DNA from: a virus | IMG/VR virus record: IMGVR_UViG_3300034061_001462 | Coordinates: 1 to 20,986 of that record | Strand: one strand, 5' to 3' | DNA length: 20,986 nucleotides | Shown here: piece by piece, positions 2,509 through 17,522 of the stretch | Layout of the letters: the number at the start of each line of letters is the position of its first letter | How positions within the stretch are numbered: position 1 is the first letter of the stretch | Program-made: the position numbers and the translations under genes | Notes under the pieces: model-generated | What the model saw: only the letters and a program-made list of their open reading frames with translations | What the model was told of the DNA's origin: nothing | Databases searched by the model: none

Positions 2509-2943
2509 ATGAGTGCTAAAGGTGCTGAACAATTTGTTTCCAATCCAATTGGTAAAATAATGGACCAAGCAGGCATTGAAAGGCCCAAAATTAAAATAGG
2601 ACAATATACAATTGACCCTACAGCCCTAACAACACCCCAAGGATTAGCTGGACAAGTTCAAAACGTAGCCAATGTCACAGAAGAAAAAAGACAAGAAAGA
2701 AAAGCAGCCGCCGAAGATAAATCCAACAGAGCAGCCGACACACAAGCTTTTAATGATTTTGCGGCTCAAGAATCTACTTTACTTACAAGCAATCAAGACT
2801 TAATGACTCCTGTTTATAAGAGTTCTATTGGTGCTAAAAAAGCTAAACAAACTGAAGCATTGGCAAATATTTTCAATGCCAGAAAACAAGAAGCAGTATC
2901 AAGAACAGCTGCTCCAGGAATTGCACAGACTAGGATGATCTAA
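2509..2943 (+). CDS. Unknown protein between terminase and portal
   Basis: The 144-residue product belongs to no family I can name. It has a short ordered N-terminus (NPIGKIMDQAGIERPKIKIG). A charged region from about residue 56 to 80 (EEKRQERKAAAEDK and following) is likely a single helix. The C-terminus is Ala, Gln and Lys-rich and looks flexible. There is no signal peptide or membrane segment. The start is supported by AAGGAG at 2496-2501, eight bases before the ATG. Its stop TAATG overlaps the portal start, so the two genes are translationally coupled. Position suggests a packaging or head-assembly accessory, but this is inference only. Confidence 0.75.
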   Translation: MSAKGAEQFVSNPIGKIMDQAGIERPKIKIGQYTIDPTALTTPQGLAGQVQNVANVTEEKRQERKAAAEDKSNRAADTQAFNDFAAQESTLLTSNQDLMTPVYKSSIGAKKAKQTEALANIFNARKQEAVSRTAAPGIAQTRMI

Positions 2944-4544
2944 TGATCCCAAATGATAAAGCCTTAAAAATTATTAAACTCTATGAGAAGTTAAAATCAA
3001 ACAGAGTTAATTGGGATTCTCACTGGAGAGACATTGCTGAATTTGTTATTCCTAACAAAGACAATGTTTATCAATTTGACAGGGCACCAGGGGAGAAGAA
3101 ATTCAATGAAATTTACGACTCTACTGCGATTCATTCAAACGAGCTTTTGGGTTCTGCTCTCCATGGTATGCTTTCAAATCCTACTAATATATTTTTTGGT
3201 CTTACTACTGGCGATTCAAAGATGGATAAGAACGACGAAGTAAGAAAGTGGTTACAAGAGTGCGTTCGTCGTATGCACCAGATTTTAAATAATTCTAATT
3301 TTCAAACTGAGATTCATGAAGTTTACCTAGACATTGGAAGCTTTGGTACAGGTGCTTTATTTATTGATGAAGATGATACTGACTACATTCGTTTTTTATC
3401 TCATCCAATTTATCAAATGTATATTGATGAGAACTACAAAGGCGTAGTAGATACCGTTGTTCGTTGTTTTAAAAAGCCAATGAAAGATATTTTGGATGAG
3501 TTCGGAGCTGAACCGTTTGCAAACGATCCAATGGCTCAAGCAATGATGAGTGACCCTCACAAAGAATACGAAATCATTCACTCAGTAGGCGCGAACACTC
3601 AATACAATCCTTACGGAAATGTATTTGAAAATAAACCATTTTATTCTTGTTACGTTTTAAAAGATAAAAAAATTATTTTAAGAGAGAAAGGATACAACAC
3701 TTTCCCTTATGCCATACCTAGATGGACTAAAATCTCAGGCGAAAAATACGGAAGATCACCAGCAATGAAATGTCTACCAGACATTAAGATGATCAACCAA
3801 ATGATGAAAGTAACAATTAGATCAGCTCAAAAAGTAGTTGATCCTCCATTGATGGCCCCAGATGACGGGGCGATGGGACCGATAAGAACAGCTCCAGGAG
3901 CGATTAATTATTATCGCGCTGGAACAGCAGACAGAATCGAACCTCTTGTGACCGGAGCAAGGATTGATTTCGGTTTCCAGATCATGGAGGACGTGAGAAC
4001 ACGGATTCGTTCAGCGTTCTTCATAGATCAACTACAACTTCGCCAAGGTCCACAAATGACCGCTACCGAAGTAATGCAAAGAACCGAAGAACAATTAAGG
4101 CTACTAGGTCCAATACTTGGAAGACAGCATAACGAATTACTGAAGCCGCTGATCGACCGTATCTTTGATATTTTATATCGAAGAGGCCAGCTTCCTCCAG
4201 CTCCTCAAGCATTGGCAGGCATGAAACTTGAAGTTCAGTATTCTTCAATGATTGCCCGCGCACAGAAAACTTCTGAACTTGAATCATTAAACAGAATGTT
4301 TCAAATCGCAGCTCCCTTGTTTCAAGTGGACCAGACAGTTACGGATAACTTTAATCCGGACGCTGCCTTTAGATATATTGCCAATACGCTTTCATTGCCG
4401 TATGAATTAATCAGAGATGATAAAGATGTTAAAAAGCTTAGAGAAGCAAGATCACAAGCGGCTCAACAAGCTCAAGAACAAATGAATCAAGCTCACGAAG
4501 CAGAAATGGTTAGTAAAACTGCACCAGTAATTCAAGGTAGTTAA
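2943..4544 (+). CDS. Portal protein (head-tail connector, T7 gp8-like)
   Basis: This protein forms the ring at one capsid vertex through which DNA enters and leaves. Its 533 residues match the head-to-tail connecting protein family of T7-like phages. Family-like segments are the N-terminal helix with W24 and the WRDIAEFVIPN stretch (about 28-38), the DSTAIHSNELLGSALHGMLSNP region (about 59-80), and DIGSFGTGALFIDED (about 130-144). A further match is the later segment QGPQMTATEVMQR (about 367-379), which is typical of the crown-side core of these portals. The C-terminus is a Gln/Ala-rich helix (QAAQQAQEQMNQAHEAE). It starts inside the stop of the previous gene, and its own stop overlaps the next ATG (TTAATG). 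Function is very secure. Confidence 0.95.
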   Translation: MIPNDKALKIIKLYEKLKSNRVNWDSHWRDIAEFVIPNKDNVYQFDRAPGEKKFNEIYDSTAIHSNELLGSALHGMLSNPTNIFFGLTTGDSKMDKNDEVRKWLQECVRRMHQILNNSNFQTEIHEVYLDIGSFGTGALFIDEDDTDYIRFLSHPIYQMYIDENYKGVVDTVVRCFKKPMKDILDEFGAEPFANDPMAQAMMSDPHKEYEIIHSVGANTQYNPYGNVFENKPFYSCYVLKDKKIILREKGYNTFPYAIPRWTKISGEKYGRSPAMKCLPDIKMINQMMKVTIRSAQKVVDPPLMAPDDGAMGPIRTAPGAINYYRAGTADRIEPLVTGARIDFGFQIMEDVRTRIRSAFFIDQLQLRQGPQMTATEVMQRTEEQLRLLGPILGRQHNELLKPLIDRIFDILYRRGQLPPAPQALAGMKLEVQYSSMIARAQKTSELESLNRMFQIAAPLFQVDQTVTDNFNPDAAFRYIANTLSLPYELIRDDKDVKKLREARSQAAQQAQEQMNQAHEAEMVSKTAPVIQGS

Positions 4545-4813
4545 TGTTTAATATTAAAAAGAAAAAACTAGACCAAGTAGCTTGTTACCAAGCTACATTT
4601 AGCTCTGAAGACGGTAAAAAAGTTTTATACGATTTAATGAAAGTCCATAACGTAATGGGTTCGACGTTTTCACCAAATTCAAATGAAATGATTCTAAAAG
4701 AAGGCGAAAGAAACGTCGTTCTTAGGATTATGCACCTTCTAAAAATTGATCCGCAAAAGTTAATTGAAGAGATTGAGAAAGGTATTTCTCACGATAACCA
4801 ATACATTGACTAG
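4544..4813 (+). CDS. Bbp19-like phage protein
   Basis: This 89-residue protein resembles the short family typified by Bbp19 of Bordetella phage BPP-1, which sits between portal and scaffold genes in many podoviruses. The features I recognise are F-x-S-x-DGKKVLYDLMKVHNVMGSTF (about 19-42), a phenylalanine or methionine-containing loop, and the helix EGERNVVLRIMHLLK (about 53-67). The molecular role is not settled; an assembly or head-vertex role is inferred from position. The gene starts within the portal stop codon. A perfect 8-bp hairpin lies inside the coding sequence at 4577-4596. Its stop TAG is part of the TAGGAG ribosome site for the scaffold gene. Confidence 0.75.
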   Translation: MFNIKKKKLDQVACYQATFSSEDGKKVLYDLMKVHNVMGSTFSPNSNEMILKEGERNVVLRIMHLLKIDPQKLIEEIEKGISHDNQYID

Positions 4814-4821
4814 GAGTCATT

Positions 4822-5658
4822 ATGTCTGAATCCCTACTCGGGGGCAATTCTACCCCAGCTGAATCAGCCGCGCCTGCAATTACACCTGCACCAGCACAGC
4901 CTATTTCCATTCCTGAAAATTGGAAAGATTCATTACCAGATGATTTAAAAGCTGATCCTTCCCTATCATCAATCATGGACATTCAGTCTCTTGCAAAGAG
5001 CTATGTTCATGGTCAAAAAATGATTGGCAAAGACAAAATCATTATTCCAGATAAATTTGCTACAGATGAAGATTGGAGCAAGGTATATCAGAAACTCGGA
5101 GTACCTGAATCTGCTGACAAGTATGAACTTAAAGCCGACGGAATGGATGAAGACTTTGTAAAAGGCTTTAAAGAACTAGCTGTTAAAAATGGCATCCTTC
5201 CAAGACAAGCCGATAAACTATTTGAGTTCTACAATTCCCACGTAGATAAAGTTATCAGTGACAACGAAACTGAGAATAAAAGAGTATTTGAAGAATCTGT
5301 AAACGGTCTTAAAAAAGAATGGGGGAATGGCTACGAAAGAAAACTTCAAGCCGCTTCTGGACTATTTAACTCTATTGCAGACGAAGATTCTAAAAAGATT
5401 TTCAATGAATCTGGTCTTGGTAATAACCCAGTAGTTATTAAAATGTTTGCTAAACTTGCCGAACAGATGGGCGAGGATAAGTTTGTAAACGCTGAATCTA
5501 CTGGTTCTATGGGCATGACTCCAGCCGAAGCGCAAACCAAGATTAATGAAATCTATGGTAACAAAGATCATCCTTATTATAATAAATCGCATCCAAGCCA
5601 TAAAGATGCTATTAATGAGATGACCAAGCTATTTCAGGCAGTTTCAATAAAAAGATAA
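4822..5658 (+). CDS. Scaffold protein for capsid assembly
   Basis: The protein guides capsid subunits into a prohead and leaves before or during packaging. The N-terminus is Pro/Ala-rich and probably disordered (residues 5-30). Next comes the characteristic segment NWKDSLPDDLKADPSLSSI (from about 33) with LAKSYVHGQKMIG shortly after. A further segment (about 69-105) contains IPDKFATDEDW and a KLGVPESADKYEL-type motif, widely shared by podovirus scaffolds. The rest is charged and helical, with a short helical C-terminus (HKDAINEMTKLFQAVSIKR) suited to contact the capsid protein. All four arginines use AGA. It lies directly before the capsid gene, as expected. AGGAG at 4812-4816 sets the ATG. 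Confidence 0.9.
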   Translation: MSESLLGGNSTPAESAAPAITPAPAQPISIPENWKDSLPDDLKADPSLSSIMDIQSLAKSYVHGQKMIGKDKIIIPDKFATDEDWSKVYQKLGVPESADKYELKADGMDEDFVKGFKELAVKNGILPRQADKLFEFYNSHVDKVISDNETENKRVFEESVNGLKKEWGNGYERKLQAASGLFNSIADEDSKKIFNESGLGNNPVVIKMFAKLAEQMGEDKFVNAESTGSMGMTPAEAQTKINEIYGNKDHPYYNKSHPSHKDAINEMTKLFQAVSIKR

Positions 5659-5687
5659 TTGACAAGATATTTTCAATCCTCCATCAT
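5659..5687 (+). promoter_or_regulatory. Possible sigma70-type promoter before the capsid gene
   Basis: A perfect TTGACA starts immediately after the scaffold stop (5659-5664). Seventeen bases later comes CATCAT (5682-5687), which matches TATAAT at four of six positions. The -10 box is weak and lies inside the left arm of the inverted repeat at 5681-5709. The predicted start of transcription, near 5694, falls in the repeat's loop. A dedicated promoter would fit the need for many capsid copies. The assignment rests on motif match alone. Confidence 0.4.
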
Positions 5688-5709
5688 AGAAATATACGTT
5701 CTATGATGG
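5681..5709. repeat. Perfect 11-bp inverted repeat (operator or RNA hairpin)
   Basis: CCATCATAGAA (5681-5691) and TTCTATGATGG (5699-5709) are exact reverse complements separated by seven bases. As RNA this forms a stable stem, but no T-run follows, so it does not look like an intrinsic terminator. As DNA it overlaps the -10 box of the candidate promoter, as an operator would. It lies in the 164-base gap between scaffold and capsid genes. That gap otherwise holds a possible 17-codon ORF and the capsid ribosome site. Confidence 0.65.
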
Positions 5710-5728
5710 GGTTGATCGAAAGGTTCCC

Positions 5729-5782
5729 ATGGACAAATCTAATGAATTTCGTGATCCTTTTACCAGGGTAGTCACAAAGTAA
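5729..5782 (+). CDS. Possible 17-codon leader ORF before the capsid gene
   Basis: An ATG at 5729 opens a frame encoding MDKSNEFRDPFTRVVTK and ends with TAA at 5782. AAAGG at 5719-5723 sits five bases before the ATG, an acceptable ribosome site. The peptide is polar, with no recognisable motif. It could be a leader that tunes capsid translation or simply chance. It ends 40 bases before the capsid start, so direct coupling is unlikely. Confidence 0.25.
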   Translation: MDKSNEFRDPFTRVVTK

Positions 5783-5822
5783 ATTACTTATTTATTAATT
5801 TTGACACTCTTAAGGAGAGGTT

Positions 5823-6764
5823 ATGTCTAATCAAATTACCGAAGCTTTTGTAAAGCAGTATAGCTCAAACGTATTTCACCTATCTCAACAAAAAGGTTCT
5901 AAACTTCAAGGTTTAGTTCGTAACGAGTCACAAAATGCTGAATCAGCTTTTTATGACAGAATTGGATCAGTAGACGCGCAACTTAAAGTTGGTCGTCACT
6001 CTGATACAACTTACTCAAACACTCCGCACTCACGTCGTCGCGTGACTCTTAAAGATTACTTCTATGCTGATCTTGTCGATAAAGAAGACAAAATCCGTAT
6101 GCTAATCTCTCCTGAGTCTGAATACGTTCAAGCCGCTGTATGGGCACTTGGTCGTGCTAAAGATGACGAAATTATCGCAGCTGCTCTTGGTAATGCTTAC
6201 TCTGGAGTAGATGGAGCGACAGCCGTTGCACTTCCAGCTGCACAAAAAGTAGCTGCTCACGATGGAACTACTACTTCAGGTGTAAACCTTAACGTAAAAA
6301 CTCTTCGTGCAGTTAAGCAAAAATTTGATGCTAATGATGTTTCTGAAGAAATCAGTAAGTCAATGGCAGTAACTTCTTTCCAGATTCAGTCACTTCTTGC
6401 TCAAACAGAAGTAACTAGCTCTGACTTTGCTTCAGTAAAAGCTCTAGTTATGGGTGAAGTAAATACTTTCATGGGATTCAACTTTGTTCGCACTGAAAGA
6501 ATCCCTCGTTCAGCTTCTAACGTAACTTACAACGTAGCTTCAGGTGTTGTTGGATCTGGTACAGGTACAATCACAGCTGCTAACTCTCGTCGTTGTATTG
6601 CTTGGGCTATGGACGGTCTACTTCTTGCTACAGCTCAAGACATCAACGGTAAAATTGATGTACTTCCTACTAAGCATTACTCTACACAAGTATATGCAAG
6701 CTTGCACCTAGGTGCTACTCGTATGGAAGAAGCTAAAGTAGTTGAAGTTATCTGTTCTGAATAA
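5823..6764 (+). CDS. Major capsid protein (BPP-1/podovirus type)
   Basis: This is the main shell subunit, expected to have the HK97 fold. The 313 residues show the N-terminal pattern of the podovirus capsid family: ITEAFVKQYSSNVFHLSQQK, then FYDRIGSVDA, then the loop HSDTTYSNTPHSRRRVTLKD. DLVDKEDKIRMLISPES follows. The helix AVWALGRAKDDEIIAA leads to a glycine-rich region, and a later segment reads VKALVMGEVNTFMGFNFVRTERIP. The C-terminal part (RRCIAWAMDGLLLAT) is also typical. AAGGAGAGG at 5812-5820 gives a strong ribosome site. Arginine codons are almost all CGT or CGC (13 of 15), while the adjoining scaffold uses only AGA. Such bias is expected for a very highly expressed gene. The 3' side has a hairpin at 6776-6794. 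Confidence 0.93.
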   Translation: MSNQITEAFVKQYSSNVFHLSQQKGSKLQGLVRNESQNAESAFYDRIGSVDAQLKVGRHSDTTYSNTPHSRRRVTLKDYFYADLVDKEDKIRMLISPESEYVQAAVWALGRAKDDEIIAAALGNAYSGVDGATAVALPAAQKVAAHDGTTTSGVNLNVKTLRAVKQKFDANDVSEEISKSMAVTSFQIQSLLAQTEVTSSDFASVKALVMGEVNTFMGFNFVRTERIPRSASNVTYNVASGVVGSGTGTITAANSRRCIAWAMDGLLLATAQDINGKIDVLPTKHYSTQVYASLHLGATRMEEAKVVEVICSE

Positions 6765-6775
6765 TAAAAAACAAT

Positions 6776-6794
6776 TGGGGGCTAAATGCCCCCA
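6776..6794 (+). promoter_or_regulatory. Intergenic hairpin between capsid and cement genes
   Basis: TGGGGGC and GCCCCCA pair across a five-base loop (TAAAT), giving a 7-bp GC-rich stem. Only ATAATTT follows, so termination would be weak or absent. It may protect the 3' end of a processed capsid mRNA, or reduce read-through to set the capsid to cement ratio. The AGGAG ribosome site of the next gene begins seven bases after the stem. Confidence 0.55.
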
Positions 6795-6811
6795 TAATTT
6801 AGGAGAAATTT

Positions 6812-7270
6812 ATGGCCGAATTTAACGGTAGTAATTATAGCAAAATTTTTATTGATGTTCCTTCAAAACAAATCAGCGAAGGCGAGCTTTCTGGTAAAGT
6901 TCGTGTTCTTCAAGATTCTTTTATTTGTGGTCAAAACGTATATGCGATTGGCGACCTCATCAATATGGGAGCAAAACTTCCTAAAGGTGCAAAAGTAATT
7001 GAAGCTTGTCTAATTTCTCCAAGTCTTGGTACCACTGGTATCATGAAGCTTGGTTTTCTTGCTAACGGAATTGACTCTGCTGATGACGATGCTTTTATTG
7101 CATCTTCAGATGCCGGTGGTCAAGCAGTTAAATCACTTATGCCAGCAGGATCAGCAGCTCTTGGTAAAAAATTTGAAGCTGATACAAGTATTCAAATTAA
7201 ATTTACTGAAGCTTCAGACGCAGCTCTCGGACTTGAAATTAAAGTCTTTATCCAGTATATTCTTGAGTAA
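6812..7270 (+). CDS. Capsid cement (decoration) protein, Bbp16-like
   Basis: The 152-residue product resembles the Bbp16 cement protein of BPP-1 and its relatives, which bind the capsid surface and stabilise it after expansion. Shared features are the N-terminal GSNYSKIFIDVPSKQ. A Gly-rich beta region follows, including GDLINMGAKLPKGAKVIEACL and TTGIMKLGFLANG, with negatively charged turns. The closing strands (LEIKVFIQYIL) are typical of a jelly-roll. Position directly after the major capsid gene agrees with BPP-1. AGGAG at 6801-6805 supports the ATG. A strong terminator follows at 7276-7305. Confidence 0.8.
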   Translation: MAEFNGSNYSKIFIDVPSKQISEGELSGKVRVLQDSFICGQNVYAIGDLINMGAKLPKGAKVIEACLISPSLGTTGIMKLGFLANGIDSADDDAFIASSDAGGQAVKSLMPAGSAALGKKFEADTSIQIKFTEASDAALGLEIKVFIQYILE

Positions 7271-7275
7271 TCCAT

Positions 7276-7305
7276 AAGGCCCTCGAAAGGGGGCCTTTTC
7301 TTTTT
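7276..7305 (+). terminator. Intrinsic terminator after the capsid-cement pair
   Basis: A 9-bp stem is formed by 7276-7284 and 7289-7297 (AAGGCCCTC with GGGGGCCTT, one G-U pair) and closed by a GAAA tetraloop. TTCTTTTT follows directly. This is a textbook rho-independent terminator and it ends six bases after the cement stop. Since the tail genes continue on the same strand 12 bases later with no clear new promoter, termination is probably partial, lowering tail gene expression relative to the capsid genes. Confidence 0.88.
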
Positions 7306-7316
7306 AAGAGGCAACC

Positions 7317-7874
7317 ATGGCCACAGAATTAGGTATTGTAAATTCTGCACTTATTAAACTTGGCGTGGAAATAATCTCAGCCCTCCCAGGAACAACTCGT
7401 CAAGGTCTTCTAGCAAACGAACAATATTCTAAAATCAGGGACGAACTTTTATACGAGCATCCTTGGAATTTTGCTATCAAACGTGCAACACTGGTTGCAA
7501 CGGTCAATACCCCAGTATTTGAATTTGCTTATGAATACAGCTTGCCCGCTGATTGCTTAAGAGTTTGGGCTACTCAATACGAAGAAGACTTCTATCAAGT
7601 AGAAGGCACAAAACTTTACTCTAATTATTCCGATGTAAAAATAAGATACATTTCTAAAATAACAGATGCCTCTACTTTTACCCCAGCATTTGCTGAACTT
7701 TTGTCGTTAAAACTAGCTTCCGATTTAGCTTTTGTTTTAGTTCAATCTAATTCTTTAAAGGGAACTCTACTTCAGGAATATTTGGTTAAACTTAGAGATT
7801 GTAGAAGCCACGATGGACAGGAAAATCCTCCATATCCTTTAACAGATGATATATTTATTGAATCGAGGTTCTAG
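7317..7874 (+). CDS. Tail adaptor, T7 gp11-like (tail tubular protein A)
   Basis: This protein likely forms the ring joining the portal to the tail nozzle. The 185 residues follow the gp11-like pattern: an N-terminal helix with ALIKLG (about 11-16), then a region in which RDELLYEHPWNFAIKRATL (about 40-58) is diagnostic. Next come a beta segment FAYEYSLPADCLRVW and a Leu-rich helix pair (FAELLSLKLASDLAFVLV). It starts directly after the terminator at an ATG with AGAGGC upstream. Its stop TAG shares a base with the GTG start of the next gene (TAGTG). The identity is strong in sequence and in order. Confidence 0.9.
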   Translation: MATELGIVNSALIKLGVEIISALPGTTRQGLLANEQYSKIRDELLYEHPWNFAIKRATLVATVNTPVFEFAYEYSLPADCLRVWATQYEEDFYQVEGTKLYSNYSDVKIRYISKITDASTFTPAFAELLSLKLASDLAFVLVQSNSLKGTLLQEYLVKLRDCRSHDGQENPPYPLTDDIFIESRF

Positions 7875-10129
7875 TGAAATATAATTCGATTTACAATAAA
7901 TTCTCTTCTGGTGAACTATCTCCATACTTGAAAGGCAGAACAGACCTTGAGGAATATTTCTCGGGCGTTGAAGAGATGACAAATTTTATCCCTCTCAAAC
8001 AAGGGGGGACGTATTTTAGACCAGGCACTCATTTTGTTGGAAACTCCAGAACTGATAACGCCAGGATATTTTCTTTTAGTCCAGCCGATGGACTAAGTTA
8101 TTTGGTTTATCTATATCCAGGACTGGCACCAGAAGTAAAAAAAGTAGAAGGTGATTTATTAATTACCTGTACTTTAACTTCTCCCTCTTCAGTATGGAGC
8201 AAATACCCAGACTTCACAGTAGCCGCTGGTTATTTTTCCCCTAGCTCTCTTGAAGTAGCCGCCGTATTTGATAATTTAAACTTTACTTCATACGGCGACT
8301 TATTTGTAATATGCGACGGCACAGGACAACTTGCCCCGATTGTTGCAAAAAGAACAGGCACAACTACATTTATTATTGATTCAGTTTTGTACCCTACTTT
8401 AATTAACCCTGATACTAATGTTCTTTGGCTTGATACAAGTGTTAAATATCCTTTACGCGTTCCTTATCAAGATCCAAACATTGATGCAAACATCAACTTA
8501 AAGCCTTCAGGTACGACAGGCTCTATTACAATTACAGCCCAAAATGCAGGAGCTACTGCGATAAATTATTTTACCGGAGATCCAATTGGGATGATGATTA
8601 AGATAACTCAAGGTACCACCACAGGCGTGGCAAGAGTTACGGGCAAAGTATCAGACAGTGTTGTTAATGCTGCCACTCAAGGCGTAAACTTTGGTGCGAC
8701 CACAGCATCGAACAACTTTGAAATCTCCTCATTTAATGCAAAAAACGGTTATCCAAAATCAGCCTGCTTTCACCAGGGAAGACTTTATTTTGGCGGGAAC
8801 ATTACATTTCCAGATACTTTATGGGCTTCATTAGTCGGTAACATTTATCACTTCATGGCAAAAAGATTTATCCAGGATGCGACTACAAACGTATCTTTTA
8901 TGAATTACTTTGGTGATATTAAAACTACAGATCCTTTTAACTTTACACTAGCCGCTACTTCAGCAAATTCCATTCAATGGATGTATCCTTCACAAACTCT
9001 TATTATTGGTACAACTAGCACAGAATACAGTATTACAGGCGGAACAGATTCGATCCTATCTGTTTACAATATTGAAGTTTCTGCTATCTCCAGTCACGGA
9101 TCAGCCCGCGTACAGCCTGTTAAAGTTGGATCTTCAATTCTTTTTGTTTCTTATGATAGAAAACGTCTATACGAGATCCCGAAGGATTTAAGACAATATC
9201 AATCAGCCACGGAACTATCAATTATTTCAGAAGGAATCCTTGATAAAGTTTTTGACTTGGTTACAACAAATTTAAATTTTTACACTGTTTTCGGTATGCA
9301 AGAACTAGCATACCAGGAAAATGAAGGATTAGTTTGGATAAGATGCTTTGATACAGCTTACAGAAAATCAGCTTTAATTTGTTTAACAATGGACAGAACA
9401 TCTAAAACACTGGGATGGTCCAAACATTTCTTTCCTTATGGTACAGGTTATGCAGACATTTCTTCAATTTCAATAGTGTCTGATCCAAGCAAAGGTAAAA
9501 GACAATTTTTATATTTGTACGTTTATCGTTCAAATTATAACGTAGAGAAGATGTGGTACAGAACAAGATACAACGCCATGAACCAATCTAATTCTTTTGG
9601 GATCATCTCTTCTGATAAAACAGTCCTGCATCTTGACGCTGCATCTTTTGTAACAGCTGCTATAGATTCAGTATTCATTGGATCAAGATACGGTAATGGT
9701 CAAAATGTTAGTGTTATTTCGGCTCAAGGAAACTATCTTGGTGAGTTTCTTGTCTCAGCTGGTTCCATAACTGTTCCTTCCGCTGCCTCATATAGCCCAC
9801 TACTCGTTGGTTATAAATATACAGGCCAGATTGAAACAATGCCTTCTGAATCAGGGGCACAATTTGGAGTATCTCAAGGTTCATTAAGAAGAACACATGA
9901 GATCAGTATTTTCATAGACCGATCAAGAGGCGGAAAATATAAAAGCTCTTTATCACCAAACGAGTTTCCAATTGATGAAGCGGGCACAGCTTCCGCGCTT
10001 CAAACAAAAGAAATAAAACTTTCTCTAAATGCCTCTCCAAATGATCATCAAATTATTTTAAAACAAGATTTACCTTATCCTATGACTATTCTTTGGTTAC
10101 TCACTAAAGGGTACACAAATGATACTTAA
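7874..10129 (+). CDS. Tail nozzle protein, T7 gp12-like (tail tubular protein B type)
   Basis: The 751-residue protein is expected to form the distal tail tube that carries DNA out of the particle. The N-terminus has the family hallmark: NKFSSGELSPYLKGRTDLEEY (from about residue 8), then MTNFIPLKQGG and FRPGTHFV. The remainder is beta-rich with few charged clusters, consistent with a beta-propeller nozzle. The phrase ACFHQGRLYFGGN (about 297-309) is another typical motif, followed by PDTLWAS. The start is GTG at 7874, overlapping the previous stop, with GAGGT at 7865-7869. The last 11 bases overlap the next gene. It has no enzymatic motif that I can see. Confidence 0.9.
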   Translation: MKYNSIYNKFSSGELSPYLKGRTDLEEYFSGVEEMTNFIPLKQGGTYFRPGTHFVGNSRTDNARIFSFSPADGLSYLVYLYPGLAPEVKKVEGDLLITCTLTSPSSVWSKYPDFTVAAGYFSPSSLEVAAVFDNLNFTSYGDLFVICDGTGQLAPIVAKRTGTTTFIIDSVLYPTLINPDTNVLWLDTSVKYPLRVPYQDPNIDANINLKPSGTTGSITITAQNAGATAINYFTGDPIGMMIKITQGTTTGVARVTGKVSDSVVNAATQGVNFGATTASNNFEISSFNAKNGYPKSACFHQGRLYFGGNITFPDTLWASLVGNIYHFMAKRFIQDATTNVSFMNYFGDIKTTDPFNFTLAATSANSIQWMYPSQTLIIGTTSTEYSITGGTDSILSVYNIEVSAISSHGSARVQPVKVGSSILFVSYDRKRLYEIPKDLRQYQSATELSIISEGILDKVFDLVTTNLNFYTVFGMQELAYQENEGLVWIRCFDTAYRKSALICLTMDRTSKTLGWSKHFFPYGTGYADISSISIVSDPSKGKRQFLYLYVYRSNYNVEKMWYRTRYNAMNQSNSFGIISSDKTVLHLDAASFVTAAIDSVFIGSRYGNGQNVSVISAQGNYLGEFLVSAGSITVPSAASYSPLLVGYKYTGQIETMPSESGAQFGVSQGSLRRTHEISIFIDRSRGGKYKSSLSPNEFPIDEAGTASALQTKEIKLSLNASPNDHQIILKQDLPYPMTILWLLTKGYTNDT

Positions 10130-10544
10130 AGCCGTATCCACGACCGAAGATCATTTAACAATGTTTGACCATAAAGACGTAGGAATTGACGTAAAAAAGT
10201 CTTTAAACTTTTCTCTTCAACATCCTGATATTCGTCCAATGATGAGTTTTTTCAGTGAGAATACCTTAGTATTTATATGCGGTTTATCGTACATTTCCGA
10301 AGGGGTTTGGGAAGCCTGGTTAATACCTGGGACAAATATCAAAAACTTTTCCAAGGCTACAGTCAGGACTATGCGGGATTTTACCAATTGGCTTCTTACT
10401 GATTTCGATGCCCATAGATTACAGATTGCGGTACTAGACGAAAATGTTAAATGGGCCGAAGCATTGGGTTTTCAATTTGAAAGCATTGTGAAAAACTATC
10501 ATAGCAGGAAAGACCATTTTATGTATGTTAAAGTGAGGAACTAA
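10119..10544 (+). CDS. GNAT-like virion-associated protein, T7 gp13 type
   Basis: The 141-residue protein has the shape of the acetyltransferase-like gp13 family that sits between tail tube and ejection genes in T7-like phages. Support comes from FICGLSYISEGVWEAWLIPG (about 51-70), equivalent to the core strands. A long helix follows (TVRTMRDFTNWLL), then LQIAVLDENVKWAEALGFQFE, which matches the last strand and helix of GNAT folds. A clear pyrophosphate-binding Q/RxxGxG/A loop is not obvious, so enzyme activity is doubtful. In T7 gp13 is needed for virion morphogenesis. AAAGGG lies just upstream of the ATG, which overlaps the previous gene by 11 bases. Confidence 0.72.
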   Translation: MILKAVSTTEDHLTMFDHKDVGIDVKKSLNFSLQHPDIRPMMSFFSENTLVFICGLSYISEGVWEAWLIPGTNIKNFSKATVRTMRDFTNWLLTDFDAHRLQIAVLDENVKWAEALGFQFESIVKNYHSRKDHFMYVKVRN

Positions 10545-10545
10545 T

Positions 10546-11085
10546 ATGGGCGTAGAAACAGCCGTACTGGCAGCAGGCGTTGGGATTCAAGCCTATTCTC
10601 AATATCAACAAGGTCAAGCTAGAGCTTCAGCAGCTCGACAAGAAGCCAAATTTAAAAGAGCGCAAGCAGCTGAGATGCTTGACAGAATGGCAATCGAAGA
10701 AGTTAATCTTAAAGAGCAAGGCGAACAATTTAAAGCAGAACAAACAGCCGGATATGCAGCCGGAGGAGTTGCACTTGGAACAGGTGCTACATTATTGGCA
10801 CTTGAAGATACCAATTCAAAAATAACTAAAAAAGTATCTGACATGAAAAGAGATACTACATTTAGAGCAAATCAGTTAATGATGGGTGCCAATGTAAGTA
10901 TGCAAGAAGCTTCTGCTTTTTCTTCCGCTGGAGCATTAAGCGCAGTAGGAACTTTATTAGAAGGTGGAGCATCTTATTATAAAAACAGAAGTTCTGCCTC
11001 ATCTTCTTCACCTAGAGTCGATAGAGCTGGTGGAACTACACAATACAGTCAAGATTATTTAGCTGGAAATACCGGAGGGTACTAA
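10546..11085 (+). CDS. Internal virion (DNA ejection) protein, T7 gp14-like
   Basis: This protein probably forms the outer-membrane pore or complex at the start of infection. The N-terminus begins with a hydrophobic helix (AVLAAGVGIQAYSQY, about 6-20). A long Ala/Gln/Lys/Glu helix follows from residue 21 to about 62. A Gly/Ala-rich stretch (GYAAGGVALGTGATLLAL, about 69-86) is typical of gp14-like ejection proteins. A second Gly/Ala segment and a Ser-rich, disordered C-terminus follow. At 179 residues it is near T7 gp14 in size. Its stop overlaps the next start (TAATG). Arginines are nearly all AGA. Confidence 0.82.
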   Translation: MGVETAVLAAGVGIQAYSQYQQGQARASAARQEAKFKRAQAAEMLDRMAIEEVNLKEQGEQFKAEQTAGYAAGGVALGTGATLLALEDTNSKITKKVSDMKRDTTFRANQLMMGANVSMQEASAFSSAGALSAVGTLLEGGASYYKNRSSASSSSPRVDRAGGTTQYSQDYLAGNTGGY

Positions 11086-13328
11086 TGCCTCAAATACCTC
11101 GTCTTCAAACACAAAATATAAGCACTAATTCGGTAGACCTTGCCCAAGGTCCATCTATTGCCAGATCAGATATAGCAGCGGAAGCATGGGGACAACTTGG
11201 TGGTACTGTCGCCAGAATTGGCGAACAGTTAATGCAAAAAAGAAAACAATCAGATACAAGTTCTTTTTTAAATACAAAGAAAAATGAATTAAACAGACTT
11301 ATATCAGATAAAGAAACAGAACTTGACGCAAAATATACTGGAGATCCTACAGGATATTCTGCTGAAATGGATGAATTTTTAAAATCCTATGGTCAAGAAC
11401 AACTTGACTCAGCCCCAAACGACGACGCAAAAGCCGAGTGGGAAAACTCTTTGAGTTCTTTTTCTAATGAAATGGCTCTCAAGTCACAAGCTAAAGAAAA
11501 CAGAAATAAAGCTATTTACCAGTCTGGCTTAGTTGATGAAGATGTTTACAAGAACAGACAAGTTTTAGCTCAAAAACCAAATCCAACTCTTGCGTTGGAT
11601 TTCATGAATAATACAGCCAAAGCTATTAACGATGGAATTGGTTTATATCACAACGAAACCGAAGCCAAAGAAAAACTTAGAAAGTACGGTGCTGATTATA
11701 CAGGAACTCTACTTGAAGGTTTTGAAAACTCAAAAAACTACGGTCAAGGCTTAAGATTTTTAAATGGCCAAGATCCTGAATCAAAAGCATTTTTACAATA
11801 CGCTGATCCTAAACAAATTCAAGCTTATAAAGATAGATTCCAAAGATTGGGCGAACAAGAAAATGAAATATCAAAAAGAATTTTTAATTCAGAAGTATCT
11901 AATGTCACCACAGGTCTTCTCGAAGGAAAAGATATTGAATCTGATTACACAAATTTAATTAGCAAATCTTCCTTTCTTCCTCCAGAAGAAAGAGCTATTG
12001 TTTTAGACAATTTAAATAATGCCAAACAATATAACCAAGCAATGAAAGAATTGAAAACACTTCCACTTGATAAAGTTCAAGGAATACTTGCGTTTGAAAT
12101 CCCGAGAGGAGAGAACGATGTTTTTAACCTTGAAAGCAGAAAACAAATGGCAGCCGTATATCAAAAAGCCGCAAGAGATTTAGTTCAAGATAAAAATACA
12201 GACGGTGCTGGGTTCATGATTAGAAACGACCAAAATATAAAAATGGCAGCGGCTATGGCAATGGACGTATCCAATCCCAAAGCCATGGCAGATTATAAAG
12301 AAATGGTCAAACAAAAACAGATAGCCAATAAAATAAATAATGTAAAAATATTAGATAAAAATATGTCTAAGCAATACGCAGACATTTTATCTTCACCAAA
12401 TACAGATGCTTCCAATCAAGTCATACAAAGTTTGAAACAAGGATACGGAAATGATTTTGGGCAAGTAGTATCTGAAATGGTAGCAAATGGTCACATCAAA
12501 GATAATACTTTAGCTATTTCTTTTTTTATGCCTGATACAGATACAAGGAAACAATATTTAGATAATATTAAAAATAAAGCAGAAATAGAAGATAGTTACA
12601 AAAGGGCACCAAAAGAATTAAAAACTGGGCTAAAAGAAATATTTGAGGATAATGAAGTTTTAAATCTTCAAAAAGCAGTTATGTCAGGAAGCAAATCAGG
12701 AAATAATCTTTGGATTAAAAACAGTTTAGAGGCTGGTCTTGAGTTAAATTATAAAGCTTTAACTGCCAAGGGTATGTCACCCAAAGAAGCAAAAGCATCT
12801 TCAATTGCAGCACTGGCAGGGAATTTTACAACTGCCAACGCAGGAAGGTCTAGCGTCCTTATACCAAAGGATTTTCAAAACTATAAATCTAATATTGAAG
12901 ATTTTATGGACGCATCTCTTGATAAGAGCAAGTTATCGCAAATAGATATTGCTGTTCCTCCAGAATACCAAAATGATCCAAAACTTATTGGAAAAGATTA
13001 CGCAGAAATTAAAGACAGGTATATTTCTGAACTATCTCAACAAGGCGTATGGTCTTCTAATGGAAATCAAAACGGAGCCAAATTAACTAAATTAAATAAA
13101 TTTGGGGAACTTGTTGAGGTTAAAGATTCTCAAGGAAAACCAATTGAAAGATCCTTTACTGAAATGCGTGATAGTGGTCTTATGGTAGATGAAGAGATAA
13201 AATCTTATGAGCAGCAAATTAATGCTTTAAAAGAAGAAGCTAAAACTTCTTATTCGGTAGCAGGAAGAGTCGCCTCTTTACAAAATACGTTATCAAGACT
13301 TAAAAGAGAAAAAGCGAGAAAATTATAA
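11085..13328 (+). CDS. Internal virion (DNA ejection) protein, T7 gp15-like
   Basis: The 747-residue protein is rich in Lys, Glu, Asn and Gln and is predicted by eye to be mostly helical. The only low-complexity part is the short N-terminus. Family-like segments include WGQLGGTVARIGEQLM (about 35-50), then a long helix ending in YTGDPTGYSAEMDEFLKSYG (about 84-103). TNAGRSSVLIPKDF appears near the C-terminus. The last 40 residues are a coiled coil (from YEQQINALKEEAKTSYSVAG). In T7 the equivalent forms a ring in the internal core and, with gp16, part of the periplasmic tunnel. GGAGGG at 11074-11079 supports the start; the stop TAATG overlaps the next gene. Confidence 0.8.
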   Translation: MPQIPRLQTQNISTNSVDLAQGPSIARSDIAAEAWGQLGGTVARIGEQLMQKRKQSDTSSFLNTKKNELNRLISDKETELDAKYTGDPTGYSAEMDEFLKSYGQEQLDSAPNDDAKAEWENSLSSFSNEMALKSQAKENRNKAIYQSGLVDEDVYKNRQVLAQKPNPTLALDFMNNTAKAINDGIGLYHNETEAKEKLRKYGADYTGTLLEGFENSKNYGQGLRFLNGQDPESKAFLQYADPKQIQAYKDRFQRLGEQENEISKRIFNSEVSNVTTGLLEGKDIESDYTNLISKSSFLPPEERAIVLDNLNNAKQYNQAMKELKTLPLDKVQGILAFEIPRGENDVFNLESRKQMAAVYQKAARDLVQDKNTDGAGFMIRNDQNIKMAAAMAMDVSNPKAMADYKEMVKQKQIANKINNVKILDKNMSKQYADILSSPNTDASNQVIQSLKQGYGNDFGQVVSEMVANGHIKDNTLAISFFMPDTDTRKQYLDNIKNKAEIEDSYKRAPKELKTGLKEIFEDNEVLNLQKAVMSGSKSGNNLWIKNSLEAGLELNYKALTAKGMSPKEAKASSIAALAGNFTTANAGRSSVLIPKDFQNYKSNIEDFMDASLDKSKLSQIDIAVPPEYQNDPKLIGKDYAEIKDRYISELSQQGVWSSNGNQNGAKLTKLNKFGELVEVKDSQGKPIERSFTEMRDSGLMVDEEIKSYEQQINALKEEAKTSYSVAGRVASLQNTLSRLKREKARKL

Positions 13329-15004
13329 TGAACGGTTTACCATTATCTCAAGAATATGGGCAAGAAACTGGACCAGAATTTGGTACATTTGAAGCCGCCT
13401 ATGAACTTGCAACGATGGATACATTCGTAACTGGTTGGGCAAGAAATACTGTTCTTGATGATTTTGATTCTCCTAATGCTAAAAAGTTATCACCAGAAGA
13501 ATTAAATTCTAAATACCAGTTTACTGAAAAACCATTTACTAAACCAATGAGCGAAGTAGCGGCTTATCATTTAAACGAAGAAGGCAAAAAAAGATTTGCC
13601 TTACAGCAAGCAATTGCCAACGGTCCCAAAGGATCTGTTTATAACCAAGCAGTAACTTTAGGAGCGGGAATTGTAGCCCATGCTTTAGATCCAGTAGAAT
13701 TTGGAGTAGGGGCATTTGCAGGGATGGGCCTTTCTGCCATTGGCGGAGCGGTAGCTGCAAGTGCTAAATCTTACGGAGTAGTAAAAGCTGCTGCCCAAGC
13801 TATGTCAGGAGGAGGGACCGCCTTTGGAAGATTCGGAGCCGAAGCGGTAGAAGGTGTTGTCGGTAACTTGGCTCTTGAGCCTTTTATGTATAACCAATCA
13901 AACAGGGCAATGGTTGATTACAGCCTCGACGATGCCTTTGTTTCCGTTATTGGTGGGGGTATAGCTGCCCCTGCTGCTATTTATGGTATTAGAAAATCCT
14001 GGGGTGGCTTGATGAATAAATCAAGTTCTGCCACAGGCCTTGCTGCCAAACTTGCCGTAGGACAAGTCAAAGAAGGGTTTACTCCAAACGTCGATCTTGT
14101 AGCAAAAGCCTACGATGACTACACTTTTAAAGATGCACCGGTTGGATCTAAACTTGGTGAAGTTAGGTCAAATTACAGATTTGAGCCTATGGCACCGGAC
14201 AAAGTAGGAGAGAAAGTTTTCTATGTTGCCGGAACAAAAGAAGATAAAAGGATTATTGGGGAATTTTTTGGGGAAGGCATTTACGCTACAGACAATCCTA
14301 ATTTCGCCAACAATCTAGCCACTAATCCAATGGAAGAGTTTGCCGTAGACGTTCGCGAGATTAAAATTAATCAAGCCAATATTTTAGATGCTTCAATGCC
14401 AAACAAAGAATTGCTACAGTCAATTTCTGAATCAATACCTAGCTCAAAGCTTAAGAAAATTATTTTAGAATCCGACACCATAAAAGATGCCTGGAGAAAA
14501 ATAAGAAATAGGATTGACCTAGACTTGAATGATTCTCACGCTAAACTTTTTATGGAATCCCTTAAACAAAAAGGATTTGATGGTTTATCAATGACCGACA
14601 ACATAACAGGTCATAATGCCCTTCATATATTTCCATTATCAGAATCAAAGATAACCGAAACAGCAAGGTTCAGCTCGGATCAATTAACTGTTCCAAAGTT
14701 GGACGAGGTAGAATTAGATACGGCTATGCAAAATGTTAGATCCCCTGAAAATAAACTAGGCTTTGACATTGAAACATGGAAAGCTACTAAAGATTTTATT
14801 TTATCGGACGATCAAAAATTTATTGATCTCAATGAAATAGAAGCAGATACAATTCAAAGGATCAAAAGTTTTGAAGAACTTAGTGAAAGGGGATTGATTG
14901 ATAAAGATTCTATGGCGGAGATTACCGCCTCCAAAGAAAGAATAAGCAATATCCAAAAATTTAAAAATGTAGTTGAAGATTTTGTAAATTGTAGAGGAGC
15001 CTAG
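13328..15004 (+). CDS. Ejection protein with ADP-ribosyltransferase-like domain (N-terminal half of a gp16-like protein)
   Basis: Two parts are visible in 558 residues. Residues 1-290 look like the N-terminal region of large gp16-type ejection proteins: helical, with Gly/Ala-rich membrane-active segments (LGAGIVAHALDPVEFGVGAF, about 111-130; GGGIAAPAAIYGI, about 209-221). Residues about 296-443 resemble ART-type domains found in polyvalent and phage proteins. The signs are VFYVAGTK at the first strand, GEGIYATDNPNFANNL at the central loop, and KQKGFDGLSMTDN followed by ALHIFPLSESKI at the end. The usual His or Arg at the first motif seems to be Ala (YVAGT in place of YHGT), so activity is uncertain. 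No lysozyme or transglycosylase motif is obvious. The gene ends one base before the next gene. Confidence 0.72.
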   Translation: MNGLPLSQEYGQETGPEFGTFEAAYELATMDTFVTGWARNTVLDDFDSPNAKKLSPEELNSKYQFTEKPFTKPMSEVAAYHLNEEGKKRFALQQAIANGPKGSVYNQAVTLGAGIVAHALDPVEFGVGAFAGMGLSAIGGAVAASAKSYGVVKAAAQAMSGGGTAFGRFGAEAVEGVVGNLALEPFMYNQSNRAMVDYSLDDAFVSVIGGGIAAPAAIYGIRKSWGGLMNKSSSATGLAAKLAVGQVKEGFTPNVDLVAKAYDDYTFKDAPVGSKLGEVRSNYRFEPMAPDKVGEKVFYVAGTKEDKRIIGEFFGEGIYATDNPNFANNLATNPMEEFAVDVREIKINQANILDASMPNKELLQSISESIPSSKLKKIILESDTIKDAWRKIRNRIDLDLNDSHAKLFMESLKQKGFDGLSMTDNITGHNALHIFPLSESKITETARFSSDQLTVPKLDEVELDTAMQNVRSPENKLGFDIETWKATKDFILSDDQKFIDLNEIEADTIQRIKSFEELSERGLIDKDSMAEITASKERISNIQKFKNVVEDFVNCRGA

Positions 15005-15005
15005 A

Positions 15006-17522
15006 ATGTCTGAATTTGCCGATTGCAAACTATTTGTTAATGACAAATACACATCTCTTAGAGAATCCATGCAAGAAGAACTTGATGAGATGCTTGACGA
15101 AATTGAGTCAATGAGAAAAAGCACCAGGACAGTAGATGGTTTTAGAAAAAAACTAAATCAATATGTTAAAGAAACTGGCATGGAAAAATTCACAAATGAA
15201 AGAGAAAAAATCCGTGACATTGCTAAAAGAACAGACAATATAAAAAGGGTATTTGATCCTTCACTTGGCGGCCCCGAAGAGGGACTAGCCTCTCTTTTAA
15301 GGTCAACAAACTACCACGGAGAAGGTGCAGCTAGATCAGTAGAATCCGTAATGAACGTAATGAATAAAAAATACGGGAATTACATTGCCCAGAATTTAAC
15401 TCCAGAACAAGTTAAAGTGATTATCTCAAAAGGACTAGATCAAGAAATTCTTCATGTTCTTGCTGGGGGTAAAAATGAAGTATCGGATGCAGCCAAACAA
15501 ATTGCTGGCGTATTTAGAAAAGTTCAAGACATGGTTCATGCAGATAAGAAAGCTACAGGAATTGAAATAAATTATTTAAAAGATAGAGGGATAAACCAAA
15601 GGGATCTTTACAATATTTCTAAAATGCAAGAAATCGGAGAGGACGCTTGGGTCGAAACTGTTTATAGCCGTCTTGACCTAGAGAGAACTTTTCCTTTTTT
15701 ATTGGAAGAAGTGGATAGAAAACAATATTTAAAAGACGTTTATCAAGGATTTATTCAGAGACATTTTGATAAAGAAGCTGTTGATTTTAACAATATTCCT
15801 AAAGATTTAATTAAATCTAATATTCAAAGAAAAAATCTTAGACCAAGGGCACTTCATTATACAGCCGAAGGTCTTGGTCAGATGTGGGAACAATTCTCAG
15901 ACAAGACAATATTAGATTCTCTTATGGCGGAAAGTGCTCAAGCCTCCAGGGATATAGCTTTGTATGACGTTCTTGGAAGCAAAGGTTTAGGAGAATTTGC
16001 TACAATAAAACAAAAAACTATCAGAAAACTAGCAGCAGAAATACAAGGCACAGCCGATCCTGCAATTAAAGCAAAACTTCAAAAACAAATTGATAATATA
16101 AACGCAAGGTCAAAAGGCTCTAATCTTTCCTTTGAGGGAGATTACGATACATTAATTGCTGGACTAAGCGGTAAAACAGATCAAATTGGGAATGAATTTA
16201 TGGCCGATGCTGGAGACAGTATTAGAGCTTTAACCTCAATGCGAACACTTGGCGGATCTATGTTTTCTGCTTTAACAGATACTTTTGCCGGAGTTACCGC
16301 TCTAAATATGGCTACAGGTGGAAGTTATTTCAAGTCAATAGGGCAAGAACTAGAGGGACTATTTTCTACATGGAAACCATCAGATCAAAAAGAACTAGCT
16401 GAGATTTTTGATTTAGCCCTTGAATCTGACATGGGGAATGAATTGAGAATTGCAGCTTCATCAAATGGAATAACCAAAGCCATAAACATAGCTAATAAAT
16501 GGTACAGCAAATGGAACCCAATTGCTCAACAAGGACGCTACCATAGAGTAGCTCCTACTATGATGCTTTCTTGGGATTTTGCAAAGAATACCGCAGGGAA
16601 ATCATGGGACGAAATAGGTGATTCTTATAAAAAAACTTTATCTAAATCTGGGATTAAAGAAGCTGACTTTGAAGCATTTAAATTAATGAGAGGTAAATGG
16701 AAAGGCAAAGAACTTATCATGCCCCATGCCGTTTCTGAAATTCCTGACGATGTAGCGTTGGCAGCTATTAAACAAAACAAAGCTCAAAACCCAAATTTTT
16801 TCCCTTCTACTCCGGACGAGTACAGGGCACAGCTATCTAGGAACCTAGGGGTTATGTTTGGGGAAGAATTTGGAAATTTTGCGGCTCCGCAACCAGGGCT
16901 AAGGGAAAAAGCTTTTTTATTGGGAACATCTCAAAAAGGAACCTATGGCGGAGAAGCTATTCGTATGCTTGCTATGCTTAAGTCATTTACCGTAAAACAA
17001 GCTTCTATTATGCAGAAAATTTATGTCAACAATCCTACTGCACAAGGCAGGGCTAAACAACTTTCAGCTCATACCATTGGGCTAATGACTATGGGATATG
17101 TTTCGTTGTCACTAAAGGCACTTATTAATAATGAAACTCCTCCTGATCCGTCAAGTCCGGCTACAATGAAAAAAATAGCTATTACAAGCGGAGCGTTTGG
17201 TTTGCTTGGTGATATGATGCTAGACGAATCCAATAGAGGCGGCGTTTTAAAAGGTTTTATTGGAGGTCCAGTAGTAGCTTCAGTAGATGAATTAACTAAA
17301 TTATCAAGAAAACTTGTCACAGGTGAAGCTGAGATGAAAGACATAGGAGAATTGTCAAGATTCGTTCCAGGTAACAACTTGTTTTATTTGAAAGCAGGGT
17401 TTAATTATACTTTGAATGACGACTTCAGGGAGACAATATCCCCAGGATTTAATGCAAGAATGGAGCAAAGAAGAAAAGAAAATTCAGGGCAACTTTGGGA
17501 ACAAACTAAAGTAATAGAATAG
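15006..17522 (+). CDS. Large ejection protein (C-terminal half of a gp16-like internal virion protein)
   Basis: The 838-residue protein opens with a charged coiled-coil (about 15-70), followed by helical regions. Its C-terminal third has the pattern usual in large internal virion proteins of podoviruses. This includes GTYGGEAIRMLAMLKSFTVK (about 642-661), then a hydrophobic helix (AHTIGLMTMGYVSLSLKAL, about 683-701). ITSGAFGLLGDMMLDESNRGG and FIGGPVVASVDELTKL follow. An upstream part holds SMRTLGGSMFSALTD, also common in this group. The product likely forms the inner-membrane part of the DNA channel. GAGGAG at 14993-14998 is a strong ribosome site, so it is a separate gene and not a frameshift remnant of the previous one. 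It is the last gene before the structured leader at 17537. Confidence 0.82.
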   Translation: MSEFADCKLFVNDKYTSLRESMQEELDEMLDEIESMRKSTRTVDGFRKKLNQYVKETGMEKFTNEREKIRDIAKRTDNIKRVFDPSLGGPEEGLASLLRSTNYHGEGAARSVESVMNVMNKKYGNYIAQNLTPEQVKVIISKGLDQEILHVLAGGKNEVSDAAKQIAGVFRKVQDMVHADKKATGIEINYLKDRGINQRDLYNISKMQEIGEDAWVETVYSRLDLERTFPFLLEEVDRKQYLKDVYQGFIQRHFDKEAVDFNNIPKDLIKSNIQRKNLRPRALHYTAEGLGQMWEQFSDKTILDSLMAESAQASRDIALYDVLGSKGLGEFATIKQKTIRKLAAEIQGTADPAIKAKLQKQIDNINARSKGSNLSFEGDYDTLIAGLSGKTDQIGNEFMADAGDSIRALTSMRTLGGSMFSALTDTFAGVTALNMATGGSYFKSIGQELEGLFSTWKPSDQKELAEIFDLALESDMGNELRIAASSNGITKAINIANKWYSKWNPIAQQGRYHRVAPTMMLSWDFAKNTAGKSWDEIGDSYKKTLSKSGIKEADFEAFKLMRGKWKGKELIMPHAVSEIPDDVALAAIKQNKAQNPNFFPSTPDEYRAQLSRNLGVMFGEEFGNFAAPQPGLREKAFLLGTSQKGTYGGEAIRMLAMLKSFTVKQASIMQKIYVNNPTAQGRAKQLSAHTIGLMTMGYVSLSLKALINNETPPDPSSPATMKKIAITSGAFGLLGDMMLDESNRGGVLKGFIGGPVVASVDELTKLSRKLVTGEAEMKDIGELSRFVPGNNLFYLKAGFNYTLNDDFRETISPGFNARMEQRRKENSGQLWEQTKVIE

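What the first reader, a model, noticed from the sequence alone, without database searches (positions are those of the whole stretch)
14213..14656. ADP-ribosyltransferase-like domain inside an ejected virion protein
Residues about 296-443 of the 558-residue ejection protein look like an ART fold of the polyvalent-protein type: VFYVAGTK, then GEGIYATDNPNFANNL, then KQKGFDGLSMTDN and ALHIFPLSESKI. gp16-like proteins enter the host cell with the DNA, so an active domain would be delivered before any phage gene is expressed. Phage T4 delivers Alt in this way (established). The first catalytic residue seems replaced by Ala, so the domain could instead be structural or act on a different substrate.
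Basis: partly seen in the sequence, partly recalled or inferred. Interest (0 to 1): 0.62.

Follow-up and report, generated by a model that had tools for sequence, protein, structure and literature searches.

The report
Degenerate ADP-ribosyltransferase domain in ejection protein
A protein that this short-tailed phage probably injects into its host carries a domain descended from ADP-ribosyltransferase enzymes, but the catalytic residues have decayed in it and its close relatives, so it is most likely a retained pseudo-enzyme sitting in a slot where related phages carry intact enzymes.

Summary
Residues 291-452 of the 558-aa protein (14198-14683) are homologous to the phage ART-PolyVal family. 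A 96-sequence ART profile finds the domain at 26.8 bits (best of 5000 shuffles 14.8). With four close relatives, hhalign gives P 1.9e-9, score 57 (best of 60 shuffles 22). An AlphaFold model (pLDDT 82, built on an ART alignment and so biased) best matches the ART-fold region of a solved ejection protein, cyanophage A4 pre-ejectosome 9k3a_B (Z 11.1). The carrier is the N-half of a T7 gp16-like ejection protein whose module slot holds intact ART-PolyVal (Vibrio phage 1.182.O), other ART, transglycosylase or ParB-like modules, or nothing. An active enzyme delivered early is not supported. The family's active site is H-Y-D; the His is absent in all five members of this branch, and the Tyr and Asp positions vary (Y,Y,Y,H,H and D,D,E,N,D). 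The domain still seems under purifying selection, so a non-catalytic role is likelier. Injected ART domains are already described; the decayed branch is a new variant. In passing: this protein and the next each keep a single Cys, at adjoining termini, suggesting a disulfide joining a split gp16.

The parts
13328..15004 (+). 558-aa ejection (internal virion) protein, N-terminal half of a T7 gp16-like protein: Gly/Ala-rich N-domain, ART-like domain, C-terminal tail ending in a single Cys
   Evidence: Synteny with Pelagibacter phages, Vibrio phage 1.182.O and phiV10; 44 of 51 members of its family match phrog_342, the T7 gp16-like family; the window protein itself only E 0.019
14198..14683 (+). 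ART-like domain, residues 291-452
   Evidence: Profile and profile-profile matches with controls; AlphaFold model pLDDT 81.9 on a 60-sequence alignment; PDB fold matches
14225..14230 (+). V300-A301, position of the family's NAD-binding His (lost)
   Evidence: Alignments; His in 84 of 88 family members with a residue there
14282..14284 (+). Y319, aromatic residue of the H-Y-D site (kept here; His in L199 and L200)
14579..14581 (+). D418, strand-5 Asp of the H-Y-D site (kept here; Glu in L207, Asn in L199)
   Evidence: active-site definition from PMC5512222
14330..14572 (+). mostly helical insert in the ART-like domain (about residues 335-415)
   Evidence: secondary structure of the model, helices at 360-368, 373-381, 385-393, 402-414
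14990..14992 (+). C555, the protein's only Cys, invariant across the family
15006..17522 (+). 838-aa partner protein (phrog_684), C-terminal half of the gp16-like protein; its only Cys is residue 7
11085..13328 (+). 747-aa ejection protein in the gp15-like position; no Cys
   Evidence: gene order; Cys counts
10546..11085 (+). 179-aa internal virion protein, gp14-like position
   Evidence: phrog_418, E 2.8e-19

Best explanation
The domain is a divergent, catalytically degenerate descendant of the phage ART-PolyVal (H-Y-D) family, lodged in an interchangeable module slot of a split T7 gp16-like ejection protein. Shown: homology; presence of intact ART-PolyVal, other ART, transglycosylase/ParB-like modules, or nothing, in the same slot of related phages; loss of the His and non-conservation of the rest of the active site in this branch. 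Inferred: the protein is packaged in the virion core and ejected with the DNA, as T7 gp16 is; an ancestral copy was an injected effector; the present copy no longer transfers ADP-ribose and is kept as a folded binding or structural module (core packing, or binding a host or phage partner).
For: Homology with controls. Fold: best PDB match is the ART-fold region of the cyanophage A4 ejection protein, Z 11.1 over 147 residues, then MbcT, diphtheria toxin and tankyrases; 9k3a_B is identical to Anabaena phage A-4L gp27. Same slot, intact or other modules: Vibrio phage 1.182.O ART-PolyVal E 3e-17; L068 1.9e-21, L029 9e-19 with two copies, L026 ADPrib_exo_Tox 2.1e-8, L133 ddrB-ParB; Acinetobacter phage SLT plus ddrB-ParB, APEC phage ddrB-ParB; no Pfam module in Pelagibacter phages. 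Degeneration: no His at the site in window, L198, L207, L199, L200; aromatic position Y,Y,Y,H,H; Asp position D,D,E,N,D. Retention: all five keep the GxGxxxTD(N/S)P motif and a full-length domain; dN/dS about 0.23 in the domain between L198 and L207, against 0.08 in the N-domain. Carrier: phrog_342 matches 44 of 51 family members, best E 1.2e-15.
Against: The window copy itself keeps Y319 and D418, so weak or altered activity is not excluded. dS is near saturation, so dN/dS is only indicative. The good AlphaFold model was made on an alignment of ARTs and is biased towards that fold; the single-sequence model is poor (pLDDT 50.9) and finds no ART. Virion packaging and ejection rest on homology and synteny only.
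Confidence: 0.72

Rival explanations
1. The domain is still an active transferase or NAD+-cleaving enzyme with an altered active site (no His; Y319 and D418, perhaps with other residues), injected to modify a host target.
For: Y319 and D418 are kept in the window; the domain is under apparent purifying selection; intact relatives occupy the same slot in other phages.
Against: The His is lost in all five members, and relatives with about 20-43% identity in the domain have replaced the Tyr or the Asp too. No alternative set of catalytic residues is evident.
Confidence: 0.13
2. The domain never served as an injected effector; it was recruited as a structural part of the virion core, as the ordered ART-fold region of the A4 pre-ejectosome might be.
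For: The best structural match is a region ordered inside a virion core; the window domain lacks the catalytic set.
Against: The A-4L domain itself shows the H-Y-D motifs (YHGT, GSGTYF, GVDAL), which argues against a purely structural origin. Three of eight relatives with capsid proteins over 70% identical (L202, L203, L204) lack the domain, so it is dispensable for the core as such.
Confidence: 0.1
3. No ART homology: a chance resemblance of short motifs.
For: Direct Pfam, phmmer and tblastn searches with the window sequence are negative.
Against: Shuffle and ORF controls, profile-profile scores and a sub-threshold direct PF18760 match in relative L200.
Confidence: 0.03

Closest known systems
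ART-PolyVal (PF18760; Tox-ART-HYD2 clade of Iyer et al. 2017, PMC5512222)
   Same: Homologous across the whole domain; found in late-gene, virion-associated phage proteins
   Different: Below the Pfam cut-off; His of H-Y-D missing; Tyr and Asp positions not conserved in the branch; mostly helical insert
ART-fold region of Anabaena phage A-4L gp27 (cyanophage A4 pre-ejectosome, PDB 9k3a chain B, residues 1420-1606)
   Same: ART fold inside a podovirus ejection protein; best structural match (Z 11.1)
   Different: A-4L shows the H, Y and D motifs; no significant sequence match to the window branch; a different, much larger carrier protein
Vibrio phage 1.182.O gp16 (AUR93058), syntenic homologue
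   Same: Same gene order, homologous N-domain, ART in the same slot, single C-terminal Cys
   Different: ART-PolyVal over the Pfam cut-off with His and Asp kept (Phe at the aromatic position); the slot ARTs fall on separate branches of a weakly supported tree
T7 gp16 / phrog_342
   Same: The 558-aa family matches the N-terminal half and the 838-aa protein the C-terminal half of the profile
   Different: Split into two genes; slot module after, not before, the conserved region; ART-like instead of transglycosylase
Phage T4 Alt
   Same: Precedent for an ART packaged in the head and injected (PMC5512222, PMC9503650)
   Different: Different ART clade; active enzyme; myovirus head protein

Membership tests
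ART-PolyVal (PF18760) | Match above the curated Pfam score (31.2 bits) | tested here: not met
   No PF18760 match in the window; relative L200 15.6 bits, E 2e-4
ART-PolyVal (PF18760) | Sequence homology to the family by profile or profile-profile comparison | tested here: met
ART-PolyVal (PF18760) | H-Y-D active site (His strand 1, Tyr strand 2, Asp strand 5) | tested here: not met
   His absent in all five sequences; Tyr and Asp kept in the window but not across the branch
ART superfamily fold | Split beta-sheet ART fold | tested here: met
   Model pLDDT 81.9, PDB ART-fold matches up to Z 11.1; caveat: the alignment used consisted of ARTs, and the single-sequence model failed
ART superfamily fold | NAD+ binding and ADP-ribosyl transfer | not testable with these tools
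   Needs biochemistry
T7 gp16-like ejection protein | Homology to phrog_342 | tested here: met
   44 of 51 family members, best E 1.2e-15; window protein itself 0.019
T7 gp16-like ejection protein | Position after gp14-like and gp15-like genes in the tail and ejection operon | tested here: met
   Synteny
T7 gp16-like ejection protein | Packaged in the virion and ejected | not testable with these tools
   Inferred from T7 and from the solved A4 pre-ejectosome

The most novel reading that the evidence does not exclude
A branch of podoviruses injects a pseudo-ADP-ribosyltransferase: an ART fold stripped of its catalytic set but kept by selection as a binding module (for a host protein, NAD/ADP-ribose or an ADP-ribosylated target), i.e. 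an effector slot in the DNA-ejection machine in which enzymes decay into non-catalytic effectors.
Probability: 0.25. Interest if true: 0.6.

Novelty: new variant of a known kind. Interest (0 to 1): 0.42.

Why it matters
It shows that the gp16-like ejection protein of many podoviruses carries an interchangeable module slot (transglycosylase, ParB-like, ART, nothing), and that an injected ART can decay to a pseudo-enzyme yet be kept. A solved cyanophage pre-ejectosome with an ART-fold region makes the role of such domains, enzyme or scaffold, directly testable. It also warns against annotating such domains as active transferases.

Tried and rejected
Direct Pfam, phmmer-PDB and tblastn searches with the window domain: nothing. 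IMG/VR scans with the 558-aa and 838-aa proteins alone: no relatives; the MCP scan found the close relatives. BLASTP against the Vibrio homologue aligned only the N-domain. hhalign of the single sequence against four slot ARTs was inconclusive (P 0.035). Single-sequence AlphaFold: poor, with non-ART hits. The idea that L202-L204 keep a remnant of the ART domain: not above shuffle level. A shared helical-insert motif with A-4L: not significant by profile search. Monophyly of the slot ARTs: they fall on separate, weakly supported branches, suggesting separate gains, but this is not settled. No paper on the A4 pre-ejectosome was found in the library. In two papers on ejection proteins (PMC8954989, PMC11784390) the words searched for gave no mention of disulfides or cysteines in either, and none of ADP-ribosylation in the first.

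Full report
What the window is. The window is a 20,986-base IMG/VR virus record with the late genes of a podovirus: terminase, portal, capsid, tail and ejection genes, then probable tail fibre genes. The nearest isolates by portal and capsid protein are Pelagibacter phages of the HTVC010P/Greip/Skadi kind, at about 44% and 50% identity. The gene 13328-15004 lies in a conserved block: head-closure/tail protein, small acetyltransferase-like gene, gp14-like protein, 747-aa protein, 558-aa protein, 838-aa protein. The same order occurs in Pelagibacter phages and Vibrio phage 1.182.O, and its core in phiV10-like and Acinetobacter phages. Of 51 members of the 558-aa family, 44 match phrog_342, the T7 gp16-like family. 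The window's 558-aa protein touches the N-terminal half of that profile (weakly) and the 838-aa protein the C-terminal half, so the pair looks like a split gp16.

The domain is real. Alone it gives no ART match in Pfam, PDB or tblastn searches. The syntenic protein of Vibrio phage 1.182.O, however, has a clear ART-PolyVal domain in the same place (E 3e-17). An iterated profile of 96 phage ART-PolyVal domains recovers the window protein at 23.9 bits, envelope 301-452. Controls: best of 5000 shuffles 14.8 bits against 26.8 for the real domain, and none of 4662 ORFs other than ARTs at E below 1. hhalign against 59 ARTs gives P 9.4e-7 for the single sequence. With four relatives found through the capsid gene (L198, L207, L199, L200) it gives P 1.9e-9 and score 57, against at most 22 for 60 column-shuffled controls. 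One relative, L200, hits PF18760 itself below the cut-off. The profile of the 59 ARTs, not including the window branch, finds cholix toxin and PARPs in the PDB, which ties the family to that part of the ART superfamily.

Fold. On a 60-sequence alignment AlphaFold gives pLDDT 81.9 and pTM 0.74. The best PDB match is 9k3a_B residues 1420-1606, an ejection protein in the cyanophage A4 pre-ejectosome (Z 11.1 over 147 residues), followed by MbcT (8.8), diphtheria toxin and tankyrases. 9k3a_B is identical to gp27 of Anabaena phage A-4L. The rest of the alignment consisted of ARTs, so this model is not independent evidence of the fold; the single-sequence model failed.

The active site has decayed. 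Iyer et al. 2017 (PMC5512222) define this clade by H-Y-D. In the family, His is present in 84 of 88 sequences with a residue there, and the Asp of G-Y-D-G in 81 of 88. In the window branch no member has the His: the segments read FYVAGT, VYFSPT, MYASPV, FYVSTV, YYMAKE. The aromatic position is Y, Y, Y, H, H. The Asp position is D, D, E, N, D. What is conserved instead is the GxGxxxTD(N/S)P segment and other scaffold positions. Between L198 and L207 the domain has dN/dS about 0.23, the N-domain 0.08 and the C-terminal part 0.28; dS is near saturation, so this only indicates constraint. A domain that keeps its length and scaffold while losing its catalytic set is best read as a pseudo-enzyme.

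The slot. Across relatives the stretch after the N-domain holds ART-PolyVal (Vibrio 1.182.O, L068, and L029 with two copies), an ADPrib_exo_Tox-type ART (L026), transglycosylase and ParB-like domains (Acinetobacter phage; ParB-like also in the APEC phage), ParB-like plus a weak RelA/SpoT match (L133), or no Pfam module (Pelagibacter phages). Among the window and relatives sharing over 70% capsid identity whose gene could be read, five carry the degenerate ART and three do not, so it is gained or lost on short time scales. Capsid and portal of L198 are 94-96% identical to the window while this protein is only 41% identical, so the entry genes diverge or recombine much faster than the capsid genes.

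Mechanism. Shown: homology, decay, slot. Inferred from T7 gp16 (review PMC8954989) and from A4: packaging in the core and ejection. Where the domain ends up is unknown; the two most hydrophobic stretches, starting near residues 125 and 203, precede it. I put 0.72 on the pseudo-enzyme reading, 0.13 on residual or altered activity, 0.10 on a purely structural history.

Known or new. Injected ARTs, ART-PolyVal domains in virion proteins, and an ART-fold region in a solved pre-ejectosome already exist (PMC5512222, PMC9503650; PDB 9k3a). What I did not find described is the degenerate branch and the slot-wise comparison. Hence 'new variant of a known kind'.

Seen in passing. In 69 of 70 full-length non-redundant 558-aa homologues there is exactly one Cys, and it lies 3 to 10 residues from the C-terminus; the 838-aa partner has a Cys in its first 15 residues in 73 of 73 non-redundant pairs, usually its only one; the 747-aa neighbour has none in 56 of 57. 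Eight of eight isolates agree once one short annotated start is corrected. A conserved inter-protein disulfide joining the two halves of a split gp16 is the simplest reading; it is untested, and profile searches found no solved structure of either protein.

Noticed in passing
14990-14992 (C555) and 15024-15026 (C7 of the 838-aa protein): Each of these two adjacent ejection proteins has a single Cys, at the C-terminus of one and the N-terminus of the next. 69 of 70 full-length homologues of the first have exactly one Cys, near the C-terminus; 73 of 73 partners have a Cys in the first 15 residues; the neighbouring 747-aa protein has none in 56 of 57. Suggests a disulfide joining the halves of a split gp16.
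   Followed up: partly
window 2943-17522 against L198 and L207: Capsid and portal are 85-96% identical to these relatives, but tail, ejection and partner proteins drop to 38-71%: a sharp boundary between capsid and entry modules.
   Followed up: partly
L029:2075-5851: The homologous ejection protein has 1258 aa with two ART-PolyVal domains and a HELVHG-like metallopeptidase motif.
   Followed up: no
L133:4776-7961: The homologous ejection protein has a ddrB-ParB domain and a weak RelA_SpoT match (E 0.0053), a possible injected nucleotide-signalling module.
   Followed up: no
L026:2843-5488: The homologous ejection protein has an ADPrib_exo_Tox domain (E 2.1e-8), a different ART type in the same slot.
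   Followed up: no
10119-10544: Small gene placed like the acetyltransferase-annotated gene of Pelagibacter and Vibrio phages, between tail and ejection genes.
   Followed up: no
L008:5549-5842: The annotated start of the 838-aa homologue in Escherichia phage vB_EcoM_APEC appears too short; in-frame upstream sequence restores the N-terminal Cys.
   Followed up: yes
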